Shown here: positions 35,916 to 44,448 of the stretch, piece by piece
Layout of the letters: every line of letters starts with the position of its first letter
Numbering within the stretch: the stretch's first letter is position 1
Source: Alteracholeplasma palmae J233
GTDB taxonomy: Bacteria; Bacillota_I; Bacilli_A; Acholeplasmatales; Acholeplasmataceae
Length of the DNA stretch: 64,000 bases
Assembly (NCBI RefSeq): GCF_000968055.1
Contig: NC_022538.1
Span: 779,499-843,498 of the forward strand
Reading direction: 5' to 3'
Notes under the pieces: generated by a model
Told to the model about the DNA's origin: nothing
Seen by the model: the letters and a program-made list of their open reading frames with translations, nothing else
Databases searched by the model: none
Translations under genes and position numbers: made by a program

Positions 35916-36865
35916 ATGGAATTATTTCAAAAAGCCATGCAAAATGATTTATCATACCTTCAACAAAATATTAATTTCATTAATGAAGTAGACAATAGAA
36001 AAAAAGTTTACTTCATTATGCAGTTTTAGGAAATGCTAATGATGTGATTGATTACCTACTCTTACAAGACATTAACATTAACCTTCAAGATATTTCTGGT
36101 GAAACAGCTGTATTTGATGCAGTAAGAAAAGGTAGAATAAATATTGTAAAAAAGTTTGTCATGAAATATGCCAATATTAACATTGCCAATGACAGGAATG
36201 AGACATTACTACATTTGGCTTGTGCTAAAGGCTCATATGATCTGGTTAAGTTACTTATCGAAAGTGGGGCAACCTCATCCAAAACAAACGAAGGCAAACT
36301 TCCAATTCATTATGCTATCTTAAGTGGTCATGACGATTTTATCATTCCTCTTTTAAGTGAGTTTTCTCTTAGTTGGGATTACTTAGATGAAAATCAAAAT
36401 ACCTTTTTACATTATGCAACTAGAACAACTAATTTAAAAATGGTTAAACTATTTTTAGAATATTGTTTGGACACAAATGCACTAAATGATCATTTTGAAA
36501 CGCCTTTATTTAATGCAGTTAAATATGGCACAGATCAAATAGTGGAACTCTTACTTAAAAATCATGCTTTAATTGAAATAAAAAATAGGCGCTATGAAAC
36601 ACCTAAAATGGTTGCTAAAATCTATCAAAAGTATCAAATTCATGAGATTCTTGAACAGTATGAAGAGTCTATTAAATATAAAAAAGAAAATAATGAACAA
36701 GTCTTAAGAAATGCAGTCTTAAACAGAGATCATGAATTATTAAGAAGACTTATTTCTAATCAGACGATACTTAAAAAAGATTATTTAGGGTACACAGCAT
36801 ACGATTATGCAGTAAAATATCATTTAACAGTTTGTATTAATATACTAAAGATAATAAAAAAATAG
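35916..36865 (+). CDS. Ankyrin-repeat protein, frameshifted near its start
   Basis: The reading frame begins at ATG 35916 after AAGGAG, runs as MELFQKAMQNDLSYLQQN, and stops at TAG 36027-36029. A second frame from before 36044 continues with ankyrin repeats. One extra A in the A7 run at 35999-36005 would join them, giving SLLHYAVLGNANDVIDYLL and about 316 residues. Repeats include GETAVFDAVRKGRINIVKKF, NETLLHLACAKGSYDLVKLL and FETPLFNAVKYGTDQIVELL. Ankyrin repeats bind proteins; no enzyme domain or signal is seen. It may be a real phase or decay event or a base-call error. Confidence 0.8.
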
Positions 36866-38156: not shown

Positions 38157-38723
38157 TTGAAACTCATACTTGCAACTCATAATAAAGGAAAAGTCATGGA
38201 ATTAAAATCTCTTTTAAATAATCCTGAAATTGAAGTAATTTCATTAAGTGATTTAAACGACTATGAAGAAATAGAAGAAACAGGCACTACCTTCTTAGAA
38301 AATGCAAAATTAAAAGCATTAACCATCGCAAAAAAATATCACCTACCAACACTAGCAGATGATTCAGGCTTAGAAGTATATTCTCTAAATATGGAACCAG
38401 GCGTTTATTCAGCCAGATATTCAGGTAAAGGCGATTTAGAAAATTGTTTAAAACTCTTAGCAAATATGAAAGAAAAAAAAGATAGAAAAGCAAGATTTAT
38501 TTCAGTTATAGCATATATTGACAAAGATCTTAAATTTAAAAGCTTTGAAGGAACTTGGGAAGGCGAAATTTCTTTTAATATTAAAGGTGAAAATGGCTTT
38601 GGCTATGATTCAGTCTTTATCCCAGAAGGATATCATATCACAGCAGCCCAAATGGAAAGTAGTTTAAAAAATAGTATTTCTCATCGTGCTAAGGCACTAA
38701 AAAAATTAATTGAAGAATTGTGA
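38157..38723 (+). CDS. rdgB: XTP/dITP pyrophosphatase (RdgB/HAM1)
   Basis: Removes non-canonical purine triphosphates. 188 residues with ILATHNKGKVMEL, TGTTFLENAKLKA, LADDSGLEV, PGVYSARYSG, GENGFGYDSVF and the terminal SHRAKALKKL. The start is TTG at 38157, 11 nt after AAAGGAG; there is no ATG or GTG before the conserved N-terminus. A phosphoesterase gene follows, as in the Bacillus ysnA-ysnB pair. Confidence 0.95.
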   Translation: MKLILATHNKGKVMELKSLLNNPEIEVISLSDLNDYEEIEETGTTFLENAKLKALTIAKKYHLPTLADDSGLEVYSLNMEPGVYSARYSGKGDLENCLKLLANMKEKKDRKARFISVIAYIDKDLKFKSFEGTWEGEISFNIKGENGFGYDSVFIPEGYHITAAQMESSLKNSISHRAKALKKLIEEL

Positions 38724-38764
38724 TATAATAAGAATTATTTAGTATAATAGAAAGGGAACATGTC

Positions 38765-39175
38765 ATGAAAATATTGATCACTGGAGATATACACGGCAAG
38801 TTAGATTTATTAGAACAAGTAATTGAAAAACACCCTGATATTGATTATCACTTAAATACAGGAGATTTAAGCATTTCTATCAAAGATATTTCTCAAAATG
38901 ATATCATCGCAGTAAAAGGTAATGCAGATATATATGTCACTTTACCTGAAAGTCGCATTTTAAATATTGATAATGAAGTTATTTATTTGACACATGGGCA
39001 TATAGAAAATGTTAAATATGGGTTAAATAAATTAAGAGAGAAAGCAAAGTTACAAAAAGCAACTATTTGTATTTTTGGACATACGCATAAACCACTTATA
39101 GAACTATATGATGATATACTTTATTTAAACCCAGGATCACTTAAAGAAGCACAGCACCTTATACATATATTATAA
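38765..39175 (+). CDS. YfcE/MJ0936-type metallophosphoesterase (YsnB-like)
   Basis: A 136-residue small calcineurin-like phosphoesterase. Metal-site motifs are ITGDIHGKLD, NTGDLS, VKGNAD, LTHGH and FGHTHKP, in the usual order. Family enzymes hydrolyse phosphodiesters in vitro; the natural substrate is unknown. It starts 41 nt after rdgB. Confidence 0.9.
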   Translation: MKILITGDIHGKLDLLEQVIEKHPDIDYHLNTGDLSISIKDISQNDIIAVKGNADIYVTLPESRILNIDNEVIYLTHGHIENVKYGLNKLREKAKLQKATICIFGHTHKPLIELYDDILYLNPGSLKEAQHLIHIL

Positions 39176-39219: not shown

Positions 39220-40074
39220 TTGGAACAAGCAATTATTAGACAAGCACAAGCTTTTTTTGGAAAAGAAGCTAATATAACAATCATAGGTAGACTACTAGGT
39301 GGAATGAGTAATTATACATACATTATTAATGTCCTAGATAAACTATATACTATTAGAATTTTAGGAAAAAATGCTCATCACTTTGTCGACAGAACAAAAG
39401 AAAAATATCATTTAGAACAAGCAGAAAAATTAGGATTAGTCCCTAAAACAGTTTACTTTAACATAGAAACAGGTGTTAAAATAGCAGAATATATTGAAGG
39501 CAATATTTTATCTGAAACAGATTATATGCCCTATCTTAATAAAATTGTCGATGTTCTAAAAAAAGTTCATCATACAACTGTAGATAAAAAGTATGATTAT
39601 GAACTTTTAAAACGATTAAATAACTATGAAAAAATAAATACTGGAATTAATCCAGAATATAAAATACTTAAGACTGAATGGATTAGTTTATACCAAGAAA
39701 AATATAATCAGTTTGAAAAAGTATTCTGTCATGGAGATGCACAAAGAACAAATCTTATTTTAAAAGATGACAAAATATATTTAATGGACTGGGAATTTTC
39801 TGGATGGAATGATCCATATTATGATTTAGCTTGTTTTGGCAATATGGAGTTTAAAGATGCCATTTTATTATTAGAAGCCTATATTGGTAAAAAAGCTAAT
39901 GATGAAGAGCTGAAACATTTAAAATTCTATAGAATGTATCAGGCATTACAATGGTACTTAGTTGCTTTATACAAAGATAGCATAGGACTTAGCCAAGAAC
40001 TTCATATAGACTTTAAATTATATGCAAATCATTACCTTGACCTAGCAAAAACACTTTATAACGAAATAAAATAG
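39220..40074 (+). CDS. Choline/aminoglycoside kinase family protein (LicA-like)
   Basis: 284 residues with a protein-kinase-like fold. The N-lobe has LLGGMSNYTYIINV, the Brenner motif is FCHGDAQRTNLIL, and the metal-binding DWEFSGWNDPYYDLA follows. It resembles LicA and choline or thiamine kinases more than resistance enzymes. It could supply phosphocholine or a related group for surface lipids; this is inference. The start is TTG 39220, 7 nt after TAGGAG. The next gene starts 12 nt after its stop. Confidence 0.82.
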   Translation: MEQAIIRQAQAFFGKEANITIIGRLLGGMSNYTYIINVLDKLYTIRILGKNAHHFVDRTKEKYHLEQAEKLGLVPKTVYFNIETGVKIAEYIEGNILSETDYMPYLNKIVDVLKKVHHTTVDKKYDYELLKRLNNYEKINTGINPEYKILKTEWISLYQEKYNQFEKVFCHGDAQRTNLILKDDKIYLMDWEFSGWNDPYYDLACFGNMEFKDAILLLEAYIGKKANDEELKHLKFYRMYQALQWYLVALYKDSIGLSQELHIDFKLYANHYLDLAKTLYNEIK

Positions 40075-40086
40075 AGGATGAAGAAA

Positions 40087-43000
40087 ATGGAAAAATTATT
40101 AAAACTTGAATCTAGTTTAGAAAATATTGACAAATTAAGTGAGATGTTAAATGAAAGCATGTCAACTTTTAATTATCAAGCAATAGTGATAAGAAAACTA
40201 GAAATGATGAAAGATTTAGGTTTATATGAGGCGGCCATTTTTTTTGTAAAACCATACCTTGTTCAAAAAGAAATTCAAAATAAATTAGAGACTGATGAAA
40301 AACTATATCATCTAATCTTTCAAATTGCCCTATTAAATAAAGATGAACATCTTATTTTAGAAGCCATTAAAAAAAGAGAAGAGGTTCTTAAAGTTTCTGA
40401 AAAATATCAAGCTATCATAGATATGATTGAATATAAAAAAGCATATCATTTAGAATATGAACAAGAAATTTTTTCTTTATTATCAGATACAATTAGTGAA
40501 TCTTTAAAAATAACTTATTTAGAAGACTTAATTAAAACTTACGAACTTGAAAAAAAATATCAAGAAATTTTAGATCTATGTTTAAAATATGAAAAAATAG
40601 ATTACAGTAAAATTTTATTTCCTTACCTTTTAAGTACTTTAATTCATTTAGAAAAATATCAAGAAGCTAAAGAAAAAGCACTATTAGTTTTTGACAACCC
40701 AGTATTAAAAAAGGATGCTCTTTTAGCATTAGTTGAAATTTATGCTAAAGAAAATGATCAACACAAACTAATGGTCTTAGAAACTGAAAATGAAGAGTAT
40801 GTTGAAAAACAAAAAGAAAGTTATCAATTAAGTATGTATGAAAAACTCTTATCATTTTATGAAACAATAGGAAATAAGCCTTCTATTACTCTTTATAAAC
40901 AAAAACTTACTAAAGTAAAAAAAGTCTTAGATAAAAATAAACTTATAAATAATAAAAACAATGAAGAGCCCTTAAAGATAGAAGAAGAAAAAAAGGTACT
41001 AGAAGTAGTAACTGAAAGTTCTAATGAACTAAAAGAACTTAATAGTAATGCAAACTCCACTAAAAAGAAAAATGGCCATTTTGTTTTTCAATTTGAAGCT
41101 TTACACGAAGTCTTAGTCTACAGTCATCAGTTAAGTGAAAAACTTAACTTAAGAGAATACTTAAGACTCCTATTTATTAAAATTAATGAATTTATTACTC
41201 CAATGGAATTTGTTTTATATCTGAAAGATTCAAAAGAATTATTTCAATATAAAAAAGAAAGACTTTATGATAAAAAAATTATTGACACATGGTTATATGA
41301 AACTGTAGTTGATCATGTACTAAAAGAAAAAGAAGAAATTATTTCTATTCCTGAAAATTTAAAATTTGATAAAAATATTATCACACAAAAGCCTTATGAA
41401 TTAGAAAAAGTAAAAATAGTATATGCTTTTCCAGTTCAAAATTTAGGTGTTTTTGTCGTTCATTTTGATGAAAATCTTTTAGATATCAGTATGTTTTATG
41501 ATTTCTTTAAAGCAGTTAGTGCAGTAATATATACTAAATTAATTGATGAACTTAAAGAAAATAGACTTAGAAGTGAAAATATATTTTTAAACAAAGTGAT
41601 TAATTCTCCTCTAATCGCAACGAGAATTATGATGAATGAAGTCACTCACTTCAACAAAGAAGCACAAGAACTATTATCAGTAGAGCCACATTTACCACTG
41701 GAACTATTCTTATTAGATATGGAATATCATCAAGTAAATAGCTATAAAAACATGATAGAAAAACTATATCAAAATAAAAATGAACAAGCTGAAATGATCT
41801 ACCTACATCAAAATAAGCAAATCAGAGAAAAATTGTTTAGTATTTATGATGAAGGAGAAATAAAAATTGTTAGTATTTTTGAAGATTTAACTAAAAATCA
41901 AGAAGAAAAAGATAAACTCCTTGAACAAGCAACAACCGATTATGAAACAAGAATTCTTAACTTAAACGCCCTTAATGCTCATATGAAAACTTATATAGAG
42001 GATAAAGCTAGTTTTATTTTAGTAGAACTACAAGGCGACTATAAAACAATATATGGCTATGAAAAGACGATTAATTTTTATAAAGAGTTTGCTCAAGTGA
42101 CTAAAAAGTTTTTTAAAGAAGGTATGGTTTATAGATACGATGATAAACAGTTATGTGTCTATATCCCACAAAATGATATTAGAGTGACAACTAAAATTAT
42201 TAAATCTTATCTTAAACACCTTTCTGAATATAGTCCACAAAGCCTACCTTATGAACAATTTACAACTATTGTTAGTGCCTTAAGATATCCGGTTGTCACA
42301 AGCGATAAAGATATTTTTAGACTATATAGATATTTAGAAGTAACATTAGATTTAGCAAAAAGATCCCAACAAGAACTATTATTCTTCGAATACCACATGT
42401 ATGAAGAAGAAGTATTTGAACAAAAAGTAATTGACTATTTAAATATAGCCCTTGAAAACAAACAGTTTACAATCCTATTTAATCAAATTATTGACTTAGA
42501 GCAAAACGTTGTTTGGCAATATGAAAGTGAAATTATGCTTTCAAATTTAACGATAGATAGTAAATATTTATATAAAATAGCTAAAAAAAGAAATAGAATG
42601 TTTGACTTAGAAAAATATCATTTAAAATTGATTTGTGAATTCTTAGTTGAATTAGAACAAAAAACAAATAAATTAATTAAATTAACTATTCCTCTTACAA
42701 AAGAAACTTTTTTACATCCGACTTTTAATGCTTATTTTATGGGGCTTTTTAAAAGTTATCAAATTCCAACAGAATTTATTCGTATCAAAGTCATAGGCTC
42801 AGATATTAAAGAAGCCCATCAAGCACGAATCAATGAACTCGTAGACTCATTTGTTGGACTTGACACAACAAACTTAGATGCAGTTCTTAATTATCCGTTT
42901 CATGCGCTTCATCTGAATTATACTGCTCGTGATGAAAAGGCAATTGCTTATTTAGGGACTTTAAACGCTCTTTTATCAAAATATCAAATTGCACTTATTA

Positions 43001-43137
43001 TTAGAGATGTTAAGACCAAAGAAGACAGAGAAATACTAAGAAAAAATGGTATTAGATATATTGAGGGAACAGTCTATAAAACCATTGATAAGAATCAACT
43101 AATAGAAAAAATTAAGGAGATTACAAATAATGACTAA
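40087..43137 (+). CDS. Large TPR-like protein with degenerate GGDEF and EAL domains
   Basis: About 1,016 residues with no signal or membrane helix. Residues 1-310 are helical repeats (TPR-like). A GAF-like region follows (about 335-500). Near residues 610-760 a GGDEF fold can be followed, but the signature loop reads YRYDDKQLCVY where RxGGDEF is expected. Near 770-1015 an EAL-like domain starts with YESEIML and ends GIRYIEGTVY, again without most catalytic residues. It therefore probably neither makes nor breaks c-di-GMP, but could sense it or act as a scaffold. ATG 40087 is preferred over 40078 because GAGG lies just upstream. It overlaps the next gene by 8 nt. Confidence 0.7.
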   Translation: MEKLLKLESSLENIDKLSEMLNESMSTFNYQAIVIRKLEMMKDLGLYEAAIFFVKPYLVQKEIQNKLETDEKLYHLIFQIALLNKDEHLILEAIKKREEVLKVSEKYQAIIDMIEYKKAYHLEYEQEIFSLLSDTISESLKITYLEDLIKTYELEKKYQEILDLCLKYEKIDYSKILFPYLLSTLIHLEKYQEAKEKALLVFDNPVLKKDALLALVEIYAKENDQHKLMVLETENEEYVEKQKESYQLSMYEKLLSFYETIGNKPSITLYKQKLTKVKKVLDKNKLINNKNNEEPLKIEEEKKVLEVVTESSNELKELNSNANSTKKKNGHFVFQFEALHEVLVYSHQLSEKLNLREYLRLLFIKINEFITPMEFVLYLKDSKELFQYKKERLYDKKIIDTWLYETVVDHVLKEKEEIISIPENLKFDKNIITQKPYELEKVKIVYAFPVQNLGVFVVHFDENLLDISMFYDFFKAVSAVIYTKLIDELKENRLRSENIFLNKVINSPLIATRIMMNEVTHFNKEAQELLSVEPHLPLELFLLDMEYHQVNSYKNMIEKLYQNKNEQAEMIYLHQNKQIREKLFSIYDEGEIKIVSIFEDLTKNQEEKDKLLEQATTDYETRILNLNALNAHMKTYIEDKASFILVELQGDYKTIYGYEKTINFYKEFAQVTKKFFKEGMVYRYDDKQLCVYIPQNDIRVTTKIIKSYLKHLSEYSPQSLPYEQFTTIVSALRYPVVTSDKDIFRLYRYLEVTLDLAKRSQQELLFFEYHMYEEEVFEQKVIDYLNIALENKQFTILFNQIIDLEQNVVWQYESEIMLSNLTIDSKYLYKIAKKRNRMFDLEKYHLKLICEFLVELEQKTNKLIKLTIPLTKETFLHPTFNAYFMGLFKSYQIPTEFIRIKVIGSDIKEAHQARINELVDSFVGLDTTNLDAVLNYPFHALHLNYTARDEKAIAYLGTLNALLSKYQIALIIRDVKTKEDREILRKNGIRYIEGTVYKTIDKNQLIEKIKEITNND

Positions 43138-44209
43138 TAAAATAGATTATGATCTTATTAAAAAAGCATGTAACCTCCAAGAAGACTCTTATAAGATTAA
43201 AGGGATTGTTGCCCTTTCAGTCTTAGAAGATGTTGATCAGATGATAGAACAATTCTTTTTAAGAAAAAGTTTAAATGAAGCAAGTATCATGTTAGATGTT
43301 TTTGGACTCCTACAAAGTTTTTTTGTAGGCATAGATGCCCTTTATGATTTATCTATAGGGACAACTAAGTACAAGTATAATATTAATATTAATCAAAATG
43401 AGACCTTAAAAGAGTTGAAGTTTATCAGAAATGATATTGTGGGTCATCCAACTCATAGAACCTATCAAAATGGGATGGTAGGTTTTTCCATGATTGAGGA
43501 AAAAAGTATTAAAAGAGATACTTTAAGCTATATCACATATGTCTTTGAAAAAGAAAAACAAACAATTAATAAAAAAACAATTTACTTTCATGAATTAAAA
43601 GAAGCTTACTTAAAGGAAAAAACAACCTTATTAGAAGAATTAACTTCTTTCTTATTAAATAAAAATGACTTATCAAAAATAGCACCTTTATTAGAAGAAA
43701 TGTTTCAAGATGCACTAAGAAGTACATATGATCTTAAAGATATAGATGAACTAACAAAATTATTTTTAGAAAATACTCAAATCAAACAGGATTCCAATCA
43801 CCGATTCTTATGGCGAACAAGAATTTTAAAAACACTTTATACATGGAAAGATAATGAATTCCAAGATACGATTGATTTTATCATTTTAAAACAAATTATA
43901 AAAATTAGTGATATTACTTATGATACTCTAAATCAGAAAAAAGAAAAATATCAAGTAAGACTCCCTAAAGCAATTAAACAATTTTATCTATTTATGAGAA
44001 AGAATGAAGACTCACTTAATTTACTAGATAATTTAAATGATAAAGATCACCCACTTCACTTAAGTGATATTAACGGACTTTTAGCATTAAATCCCCCTAT
44101 AAGAGCAAAAAAACTTTTAGAATGGTTAAAAACGATTAATCATGGACCTTATGTTTATGCATTAGGCTCAATCTTAAAAGAATATAAGAAAAATAATAAA
44201 ACTCAATGA
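43130..44209 (+). CDS. Helical protein with HEPN-like RNDIVGH motif
   Basis: 359 residues, nearly all helical, of no family I can name with confidence. Residues 100-106 read RNDIVGH, matching the R(x)4-6H catalytic motif of HEPN domains, in a helix-rich context (ETLKELKFIRNDIVGHPTH). HEPN proteins are often RNases in stress or defence systems, but many are inactive. It is translationally coupled to the degenerate GGDEF-EAL gene upstream (8-nt overlap), so the two products likely work together. The C-terminal half shows only helices. Confidence 0.6.
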   Translation: MTNKIDYDLIKKACNLQEDSYKIKGIVALSVLEDVDQMIEQFFLRKSLNEASIMLDVFGLLQSFFVGIDALYDLSIGTTKYKYNININQNETLKELKFIRNDIVGHPTHRTYQNGMVGFSMIEEKSIKRDTLSYITYVFEKEKQTINKKTIYFHELKEAYLKEKTTLLEELTSFLLNKNDLSKIAPLLEEMFQDALRSTYDLKDIDELTKLFLENTQIKQDSNHRFLWRTRILKTLYTWKDNEFQDTIDFIILKQIIKISDITYDTLNQKKEKYQVRLPKAIKQFYLFMRKNEDSLNLLDNLNDKDHPLHLSDINGLLALNPPIRAKKLLEWLKTINHGPYVYALGSILKEYKKNNKTQ

Positions 44210-44247: not shown

Positions 44248-44448
44248 ATGGCTTGGAGCAATGAGACTTACCTAATTGGTGAAAAAGTTAAAGTAGAAAA
44301 CGAACGTGATGCAGGTGTTGTAACACGTATAGATTTAAAAAGAGGTTTAATATATGTTATTTTCAAACGTATGAGAGAAGAAATGTATCCTTATCCTGAA
44401 GCGTTAGAAAAGAATATTATTATTCCATTGATTCAAAAGAAACAATAA
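44248..44448 (+). CDS. Small protein of unknown function
   Basis: 66 residues with a small beta-rich pattern (YLIGEKVKVENERDAGVVTR, then GLIYVIFK) that recalls KOW or SH3-type barrels, though I cannot name a family. An AAGGAG site precedes ATG, and TATAAT lies at 44217-44222. It is probably a single-gene transcript. Confidence 0.7.
   Translation: MAWSNETYLIGEKVKVENERDAGVVTRIDLKRGLIYVIFKRMREEMYPYPEALEKNIIIPLIQKKQ

What the first reader, a model, noticed from the sequence alone, without database searches (positions are those of the whole stretch)
40087..44209. Coupled pair: degenerate GGDEF-EAL scaffold and HEPN-like protein
A 1,016-residue TPR/GAF-like/GGDEF/EAL protein without recognisable catalytic residues overlaps by 8 nt a helical protein with an Rx5H motif (R100, H106). 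c-di-GMP signalling is not expected in mollicutes. A nucleotide-sensing scaffold controlling a possible RNase is an attractive, undescribed arrangement.
Basis: partly seen in the sequence, partly recalled or inferred. Interest (0 to 1): 0.6.

Follow-up and report, generated by a model that had tools for sequence, protein, structure and literature searches.

The report
Dead GGDEF-EAL scaffold with HEPN-like partner
Nearly all Acholeplasma-like bacteria carry a large sensor-like protein whose two cyclic-di-GMP domains have lost their catalytic residues, together with a smaller protein that has an invariant RNase-type motif, and some species keep the pair although no cyclic-di-GMP-making enzyme was detected in them, which suggests the old signalling fold was reused, probably to control RNA cutting.

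Summary
Gene A (40087-43137, 1016 aa) has TPR, GAF-like, PAS, GGDEF and EAL parts; the GGDEF-EAL fold is confirmed (VIA Z 26.8) and both domains are degenerate across the family. No aligned member keeps GGDEF, DDFG or the arginine of ExLxR, so catalysis and probably c-di-GMP binding are lost. Gene B (43130-44209, 359 aa) overlaps A by 8 nt. Its RNDxxGHP motif (R100, H106) is invariant in 77 homologues, and its confident model (pLDDT 93.5) has the HEPN layout. No database search identified it as HEPN, so that step is inference.

Yet six relatives (90-99% complete) keep A and B with no intact GGDEF domain and no EAL outside A. The pair is a vertically inherited core module of Acholeplasmatales, not a mobile toxin-antitoxin cassette. 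It has different neighbours in two families, co-evolves strongly (partial r 0.81), and B was never found without A (58 of 58), while A survives clean loss of B.

Best reading: A is a c-di-GMP-independent scaffold that restrains or directs an RNase, B. It works like CsrD with RNase E, but is not a CsrD.

The parts
40087..43137 (+). Gene A: 1016-aa TPR / GAF-like / PAS / pseudo-GGDEF / pseudo-EAL scaffold
40087..40956 (+). A residues 1-290: helical TPR-like repeats
   Evidence: AF2 all-helical; family profile hits consensus TPR proteins at 149-277, E 1.1e-7
40948..41073 (+). A residues 288-329: predicted disordered linker
   Evidence: pLDDT below 50
41134..41511 (+). A residues 350-475: GAF-like alpha/beta domain with conserved K389, R392, Y394, K396
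   Evidence: secondary structure of the model and conservation only; no HMM hit
41602..41886 (+). A residues 506-600: PAS domain
   Evidence: PAS-GGDEF-EAL structures of PA0861 and DosP align from about residue 504-506; PAS_3 in 2 members
41890..42384 (+). A residues 602-766: degenerate GGDEF (DDKQL at 685-689; conserved N696, D697, R699)
42409..43128 (+). A residues 775-1014: degenerate EAL
   Evidence: Pfam E 8.5e-11; VIA Z 25-26, rmsd 2.3-2.6 over about 235 residues; motif tables
43114..43119 (+). Shine-Dalgarno AAGGAG of gene B, inside the 3' end of A
   Evidence: sequence read directly
43130..43137 (+). 8-nt A/B overlap (ATGACTAA)
   Evidence: across homologues the usual overlap is 4 nt (35 of 51 pairs)
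43130..44209 (+). Gene B: 359-aa HEPN-like protein
43184..43657 (+). B residues 19-176: HEPN-like four-helix layout with beta-hairpin insert (117-152) after the motif
   Evidence: AF2 pLDDT 93.5, pTM 0.90, compared with the HEPN description in PMC3710099
43427..43447 (+). B R100-N-D-I-V-G-H106, the Rx5H motif
   Evidence: RND[IV]VGH in 77 of 77 aligned homologues and in the second family's copies checked
43679..44200 (+). B residues 184-357: C-terminal helical domain of unassigned fold (invariant R225)
39220..40074 (+). Conserved upstream gene: choline-kinase/APH-like phosphotransferase
   Evidence: Pfam E 1.4e-16; synteny
38765..39175 (+). Conserved upstream gene: YfcE-type metallophosphoesterase
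38157..38747 (+). Conserved upstream gene: Ham1/RdgB (XTP/dITP) pyrophosphatase (exact start codon uncertain)
   Evidence: cluster c2, Pfam Ham1p_like in a homologue
44248..44448 (+). Conserved downstream 66-aa protein, no known family
   Evidence: cluster c8, 27 members

Best explanation
A and B form one regulatory module. A is a soluble scaffold: TPR repeats for protein contacts, GAF-like and PAS parts for sensing something other than c-di-GMP, and a GGDEF-EAL pair that has become structural. B is a HEPN-type, metal-independent endoribonuclease with R100, N101 and H106 as active site and D69 as the supporting acidic residue. A binds B and restrains it, or directs it to its RNA, and a signal read by the GAF-like/PAS part changes that. 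Shown: degenerate GGDEF-EAL fold, invariant motif, conserved gene pair with overlapping junctions, co-evolution, B never found without A, retention where no intact GGDEF domain was detected. Inferred: that B is an RNase, that A and B touch, and the direction of control.
For: GGDEF-EAL fold of A: Foldseek E 2e-22, VIA Z 26.8. Family-wide loss of catalytic and ExLxR residues. B motif RND[IV]VGH in 77/77 and in the second family; the model places it at the end of helix 3 with invariant D69 in helix 2 and a beta-hairpin after the motif, as described for HEPN and Csx1. Pair side by side in families with different neighbours: rdgB-yfcE-kinase-A-B in Acholeplasmataceae and apt-relA-dtd-A-B in family f19; both retained though unlinked in f3. 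49 of 51 measured junctions overlap, 35 of them by 4 nt. Tree-distance correlation A-B 0.90, partial 0.81 given rdgB. B in 58 genomes, all with A; A without B in 8 relatives, five with B missing from its usual place. Six genomes keep A+B without an intact GGDEF or another EAL.
Against: No HEPN family hit by Pfam, NCBIfam, PADLOC, PHROGs or PDB profile searches; no HEPN chain among the Foldseek/VIA rows shown; hhalign to HepT-like not significant, though its best short alignment pairs the R-N positions. Physical interaction was neither modelled nor tested. A surviving without B shows A also has, or can acquire, a B-independent role.
Confidence: 0.5

Rival explanations
1. B is a HEPN-fold RNA- or nucleotide-binding protein without nuclease activity, and A-B is a sensor-adaptor pair, for example acting on ribosomes or translation.
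For: HEPN domains can be non-catalytic binders (PMC3710099). In f3 and allied genomes B lies beside typA/bipA or pyruvate kinase, and A-B lies beside relA-dtd in f19.
Against: Full invariance of R, N and H in the motif, including the second family, is typical of catalytic HEPN domains. The neighbours are ordinary housekeeping genes and may mean nothing.
Confidence: 0.2
2. A is a c-di-GMP receptor (FimX/LapD-like) that controls B in response to c-di-GMP.
For: This genome has intact GGDEF and EAL enzymes; dead EAL domains are often receptors (PMC10333796).
Against: ExLxR is absent in all aligned homologues; six relatives keep A and B with no intact GGDEF domain detected.
Confidence: 0.08
3. A-B is a toxin-antitoxin or phage-defence cassette.
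For: HEPN toxins are common in such systems; B is never found without A.
Against: Single-copy, near-universal in the order, co-evolving with a core gene, stable synteny, no consistent PADLOC match.
Confidence: 0.06
4. B is an unrelated helical protein and the Rx5H motif is a structural or ligand site that only resembles HEPN.
For: No significant database or fold match; conserved residues extend beyond the HEPN set (N86, N88, N90, P107, R110, Y134, R225).
Against: Motif spacing, polar residue after R, position at the end of helix 3, acidic residue in helix 2 and the beta-hairpin insert all fit the published HEPN description.
Confidence: 0.16

Closest known systems
CsrD (GAPES4-HAMP - dead GGDEF - dead EAL), E. 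coli
   Same: Catalytically dead GGDEF-EAL protein, c-di-GMP independent in E. coli (ExMxR, no binding), linked to RNA degradation by an endoRNase (PMC10333796).
   Different: CsrD carries GAPES4-HAMP parts and acts with RNase E on the CsrB/CsrC RNAs; A has TPR/GAF-like/PAS parts and sits beside its own putative RNase. There is no evidence for Csr RNAs here.
FimX and LapD degenerate GGDEF-EAL receptors
   Same: Dead GGDEF-EAL pair used for protein control; FimX and LapD are among the closest folds.
   Different: They keep ExLxR and bind c-di-GMP; A does not keep it.
HEPN ribonucleases (HepT, RNase LS, Csx1/Csm6)
   Same: Rx4-6H motif at the end of helix 3, polar residue after R, acidic residue in helix 2; beta-hairpin after the motif as in Csx1.
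   Different: No detectable sequence similarity; extra C-terminal helical domain; core-genome gene rather than a mobile toxin; partner is a GGDEF-EAL scaffold instead of MNT or CARF.
DosP and PA0861 (PAS-GGDEF-EAL)
   Same: Same domain order in the C-terminal half; best sequence-profile and Foldseek matches.
   Different: Those are c-di-GMP enzymes or carry the enzyme motifs; A lacks the catalytic residues and has TPR and GAF-like parts.

Membership tests
GGDEF/EAL domain superfamily (fold) | GGDEF-EAL tandem fold | tested here: met
   VIA Z 26.8 to 5m3c over 395 residues; EAL alone Z 25-26; Pfam EAL in 40/45, GGDEF in 21/45
Active diguanylate cyclase / EAL phosphodiesterase | GG(D/E)EF motif; EAL metal ligands and catalytic K/E | tested here: not met
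   Motif tables over 45 homologues; alignment to intact enzymes of the same genome
Degenerate EAL c-di-GMP receptor (FimX/LapD type) | ExLxR motif retained | tested here: not met
   No R at that column in either 45-row alignment and no ExLxR near the site; requirement from PMC10333796
CsrD | HAMP-dGGDEF-dEAL protein promoting CsrB/C decay by RNase E | tested here: not met
   A has TPR/GAF-like/PAS parts and no Pfam HAMP hit; action on RNA untested
HEPN superfamily | Rx4-6H motif with polar residue after R | tested here: met
   RND[IV]VGH in 77/77
HEPN superfamily | Motif at the end of helix 3 of a four-helix core, acidic residue in helix 2 | tested here: met
   AF2 secondary structure against PMC3710099; coordinates could not be superposed
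HEPN superfamily | Sequence-profile or structural match to a known HEPN member | tested here: inconclusive
   None listed by Foldseek/VIA; hhalign to HepT-like not significant; other HEPN families not compared
HEPN superfamily | Endoribonuclease activity | not testable with these tools
   needs biochemistry
Type II toxin-antitoxin / anti-phage defence | Mobile, patchy distribution or match to a known defence model | tested here: not met
   Near-universal single-copy core gene in the order; no consistent PADLOC match

The most novel reading that the evidence does not exclude
A lineage-wide regulatory switch in Acholeplasmatales in which a former c-di-GMP enzyme, now unable to make, break or probably bind c-di-GMP, serves as the dedicated scaffold and sensor of a new HEPN ribonuclease family, so that core RNA turnover is controlled by the remains of a second-messenger system and persists after the messenger is gone.
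Probability: 0.35. Interest if true: 0.75.

Novelty: new variant of a known kind. Interest (0 to 1): 0.57.

Why it matters
It would be a conserved, testable case of a second-messenger fold reused as a scaffold after loss of its messenger, with the putative RNase encoded by the next gene, in bacteria with small genomes where every conserved gene carries weight. It would extend the CsrD principle (dead GGDEF-EAL protein controlling RNA decay) to an unrelated lineage and add a core-genome, non-toxin member to the HEPN-like proteins. No paper in the searched library combines the terms 'degenerate GGDEF', 'EAL' and 'HEPN' or 'Acholeplasma' and 'HEPN'.

Tried and rejected
Reading the genes with code 4: not needed, both fit code 11. 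Searching B in Pfam, NCBIfam, PADLOC, PHROGs and PDB sequences: only scattered weak hits to a few members. Foldseek against PDB and viral models for B: nothing at E below 0.001; VIA rows cover mainly the bundle 178-270 and are of the size expected for common helical bundles; no HEPN chain is listed, which does not exclude the fold. hhalign of B residues 1-180 to a HepT-like alignment: probability 0.2%, the same as the negative controls. The HEPN_RiboL-PSP family in the phylum gave too few members to build a comparison. I expected the single remaining GGDEF protein in genomes poor in GGDEF to be GdpP; those read (about 500-530 aa) have no DHH motif and are a separate degenerate family. Toxin-antitoxin reading: rejected for distribution. 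Promoter scan: no more sites than in shuffled sequence.
Full report
WHAT IS THERE. The window lies in a single-contig genome of 1,554,229 bases. From memory that size matches Acholeplasma palmae J233; relatives by locus title are Acholeplasma and allied Acholeplasmataceae. Upstream, in the same direction and with short gaps, lie a Ham1/RdgB pyrophosphatase, a YfcE-type phosphoesterase and a choline-kinase-like protein.

GENE A. Pfam finds EAL in A (E 8.5e-11) and in 40 of 45 homologues, and GGDEF in 21 of 45. The AlphaFold2 model (mean pLDDT 87; pTM only 0.46, so the relative placement of domains is uncertain) matches GGDEF-EAL structures strongly: PA0575 Z 26.8, many EAL domains Z 25-26, and PAS-GGDEF-EAL proteins from about residue 505. 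The family profile also matches consensus TPR proteins at residues 149-277. The GAF label for residues 350-475 rests only on the predicted strand/helix pattern. Compared with the intact EAL enzyme of the same genome, A has lost the Mg-binding N and E, the second D, the K, the loop-6 E and the Q; GGDEF reads DDKQL, and DFNQL is the commonest form in the family. Review authors name ExLxR as determining c-di-GMP binding in dead EAL domains (PMC10333796); no row of two 45-row alignments has the R, an ExLxR near the site, a GGDEF-like motif or DDFG. These losses are family-wide, so they are old.

GENE B. No family library recognises it. Among 77 sequences (homologues 23-59% identical to the window protein) Q62, F65, V66, D69, Y72, N86, N88, N90, R100, N101, D102, V104, G105, H106, P107, R110, Y134 and R225 are invariant. 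The copies in a second family (f19) keep RND[IV]VGHP too. The model is very confident (pLDDT 93.5, pTM 0.90): helices 19-44, 50-79 and 91-105, a beta-hairpin region 117-152, helix 153-176, then a C-terminal helical part. A published survey of HEPN domains places the Rx4-6H motif at the end of helix 3, a polar residue (N, D or H) after the R, a conserved acidic residue in helix 2, and, in Csx1, a beta-hairpin just after the motif (PMC3710099). B fits each point (R100-N101 ... H106; D69). But fold searches list no HEPN structure and a profile comparison with HepT-like proteins is not significant. I therefore call B HEPN-like; membership is not proven.

DISTRIBUTION. In 61 relatives A occurs in 56 and B in 48. 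In larger samples of the class and phylum B is confined to the order and to one further family, f19. All 58 genomes with B also have A. The reverse fails: eight relatives have A but no B, and in five of them the locus is readable with B simply missing (L089, L095, L099, L102, L128), as in an f19 subgroup (L254, L256-L258). Most of these genomes are incomplete drafts, but L102's is rated 100% complete; its A is itself damaged by a stop. Both genes are absent from genus g8 (0.7-0.9 Mb genomes, presumably phytoplasmas).

CONTEXT AND CO-EVOLUTION. In Acholeplasmataceae and family f5 the order is rdgB - yfcE - kinase-like - A - B; in f19 it is apt - relA - dtd - A - B - unknown - nusB - xseA; in f3 A stays by rdgB-yfcE while B lies elsewhere, often next to typA/bipA or pyruvate kinase. 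Of 51 measured A/B junctions 49 overlap (35 by 4 nt) and two have gaps of 2-3 nt. Tree distances of A and B correlate at 0.90 over 38 genomes, ten of them with the genes unlinked; the partial correlation given rdgB is 0.81. One reference gene does not fully remove shared phylogeny, so this is supporting evidence only.

c-di-GMP. Fourteen GGDEF/EAL proteins were noted in A. laidlawii in 2008 (PMC2408644). The useful test is the reverse one. Six relatives (G006, G007, G020, G042, G049, G053; 90-99% complete) keep both A and B, yet their only GGDEF matches are A itself or a degenerate protein without a GGDEF motif, and their only EAL match, if any, is A. HD-GYP enzymes and unconventional cyclases were not searched. 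Together with the loss of ExLxR this makes c-di-GMP an unlikely ligand.

MECHANISM. I infer that A is a protein scaffold and sensor, and that B is an RNase held or steered by A. This is what CsrD does with RNase E in E. coli, by function and not by membership. The one-sided dependence (B never without A) fits a potentially harmful B that needs A, but the independent losses of B are few. Interaction, RNase activity and ligand are all untested.

Noticed in passing
L296:424-1995 (also L297, L298, L299, L300, L301, L303): A second conserved family of about 500-530 aa: N-terminal hydrophobic segment, PAS domains, degenerate GGDEF (e.g. RLTGSTF in place of RYGGDEF), present in relatives with no intact GGDEF domain.
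   Followed up: partly
L005:1318-2646 (own genome, about G000:C1:755965-757293): A 442-aa protein with a hydrophobic N-terminus and both a degenerate GGDEF and a degenerate EAL domain, separate from gene A.
   Followed up: no
window 44248-44448: A 66-aa protein directly downstream of B, conserved in about 27 loci, no known family; in two genomes lacking B it follows A directly (L089, L128).
   Followed up: partly
L245, L246, L247, L248: In family f19 the A-B pair sits directly behind apt-relA-dtd and ahead of an unknown 295-382-aa gene and nusB-xseA; the placement next to the (p)ppGpp synthetase is unexplained.
   Followed up: partly
window 41251-41274 (A residues 389-396): Basic motif K389-x2-R392-x-Y394-x-K396 in the GAF-like part of A, nearly invariant in the family; could bind a ligand or RNA.
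   Followed up: no
window 36044-36865: Ankyrin-repeat protein conserved upstream of the rdgB-yfcE-A-B run in many relatives (cluster c6, 30 members).
   Followed up: no
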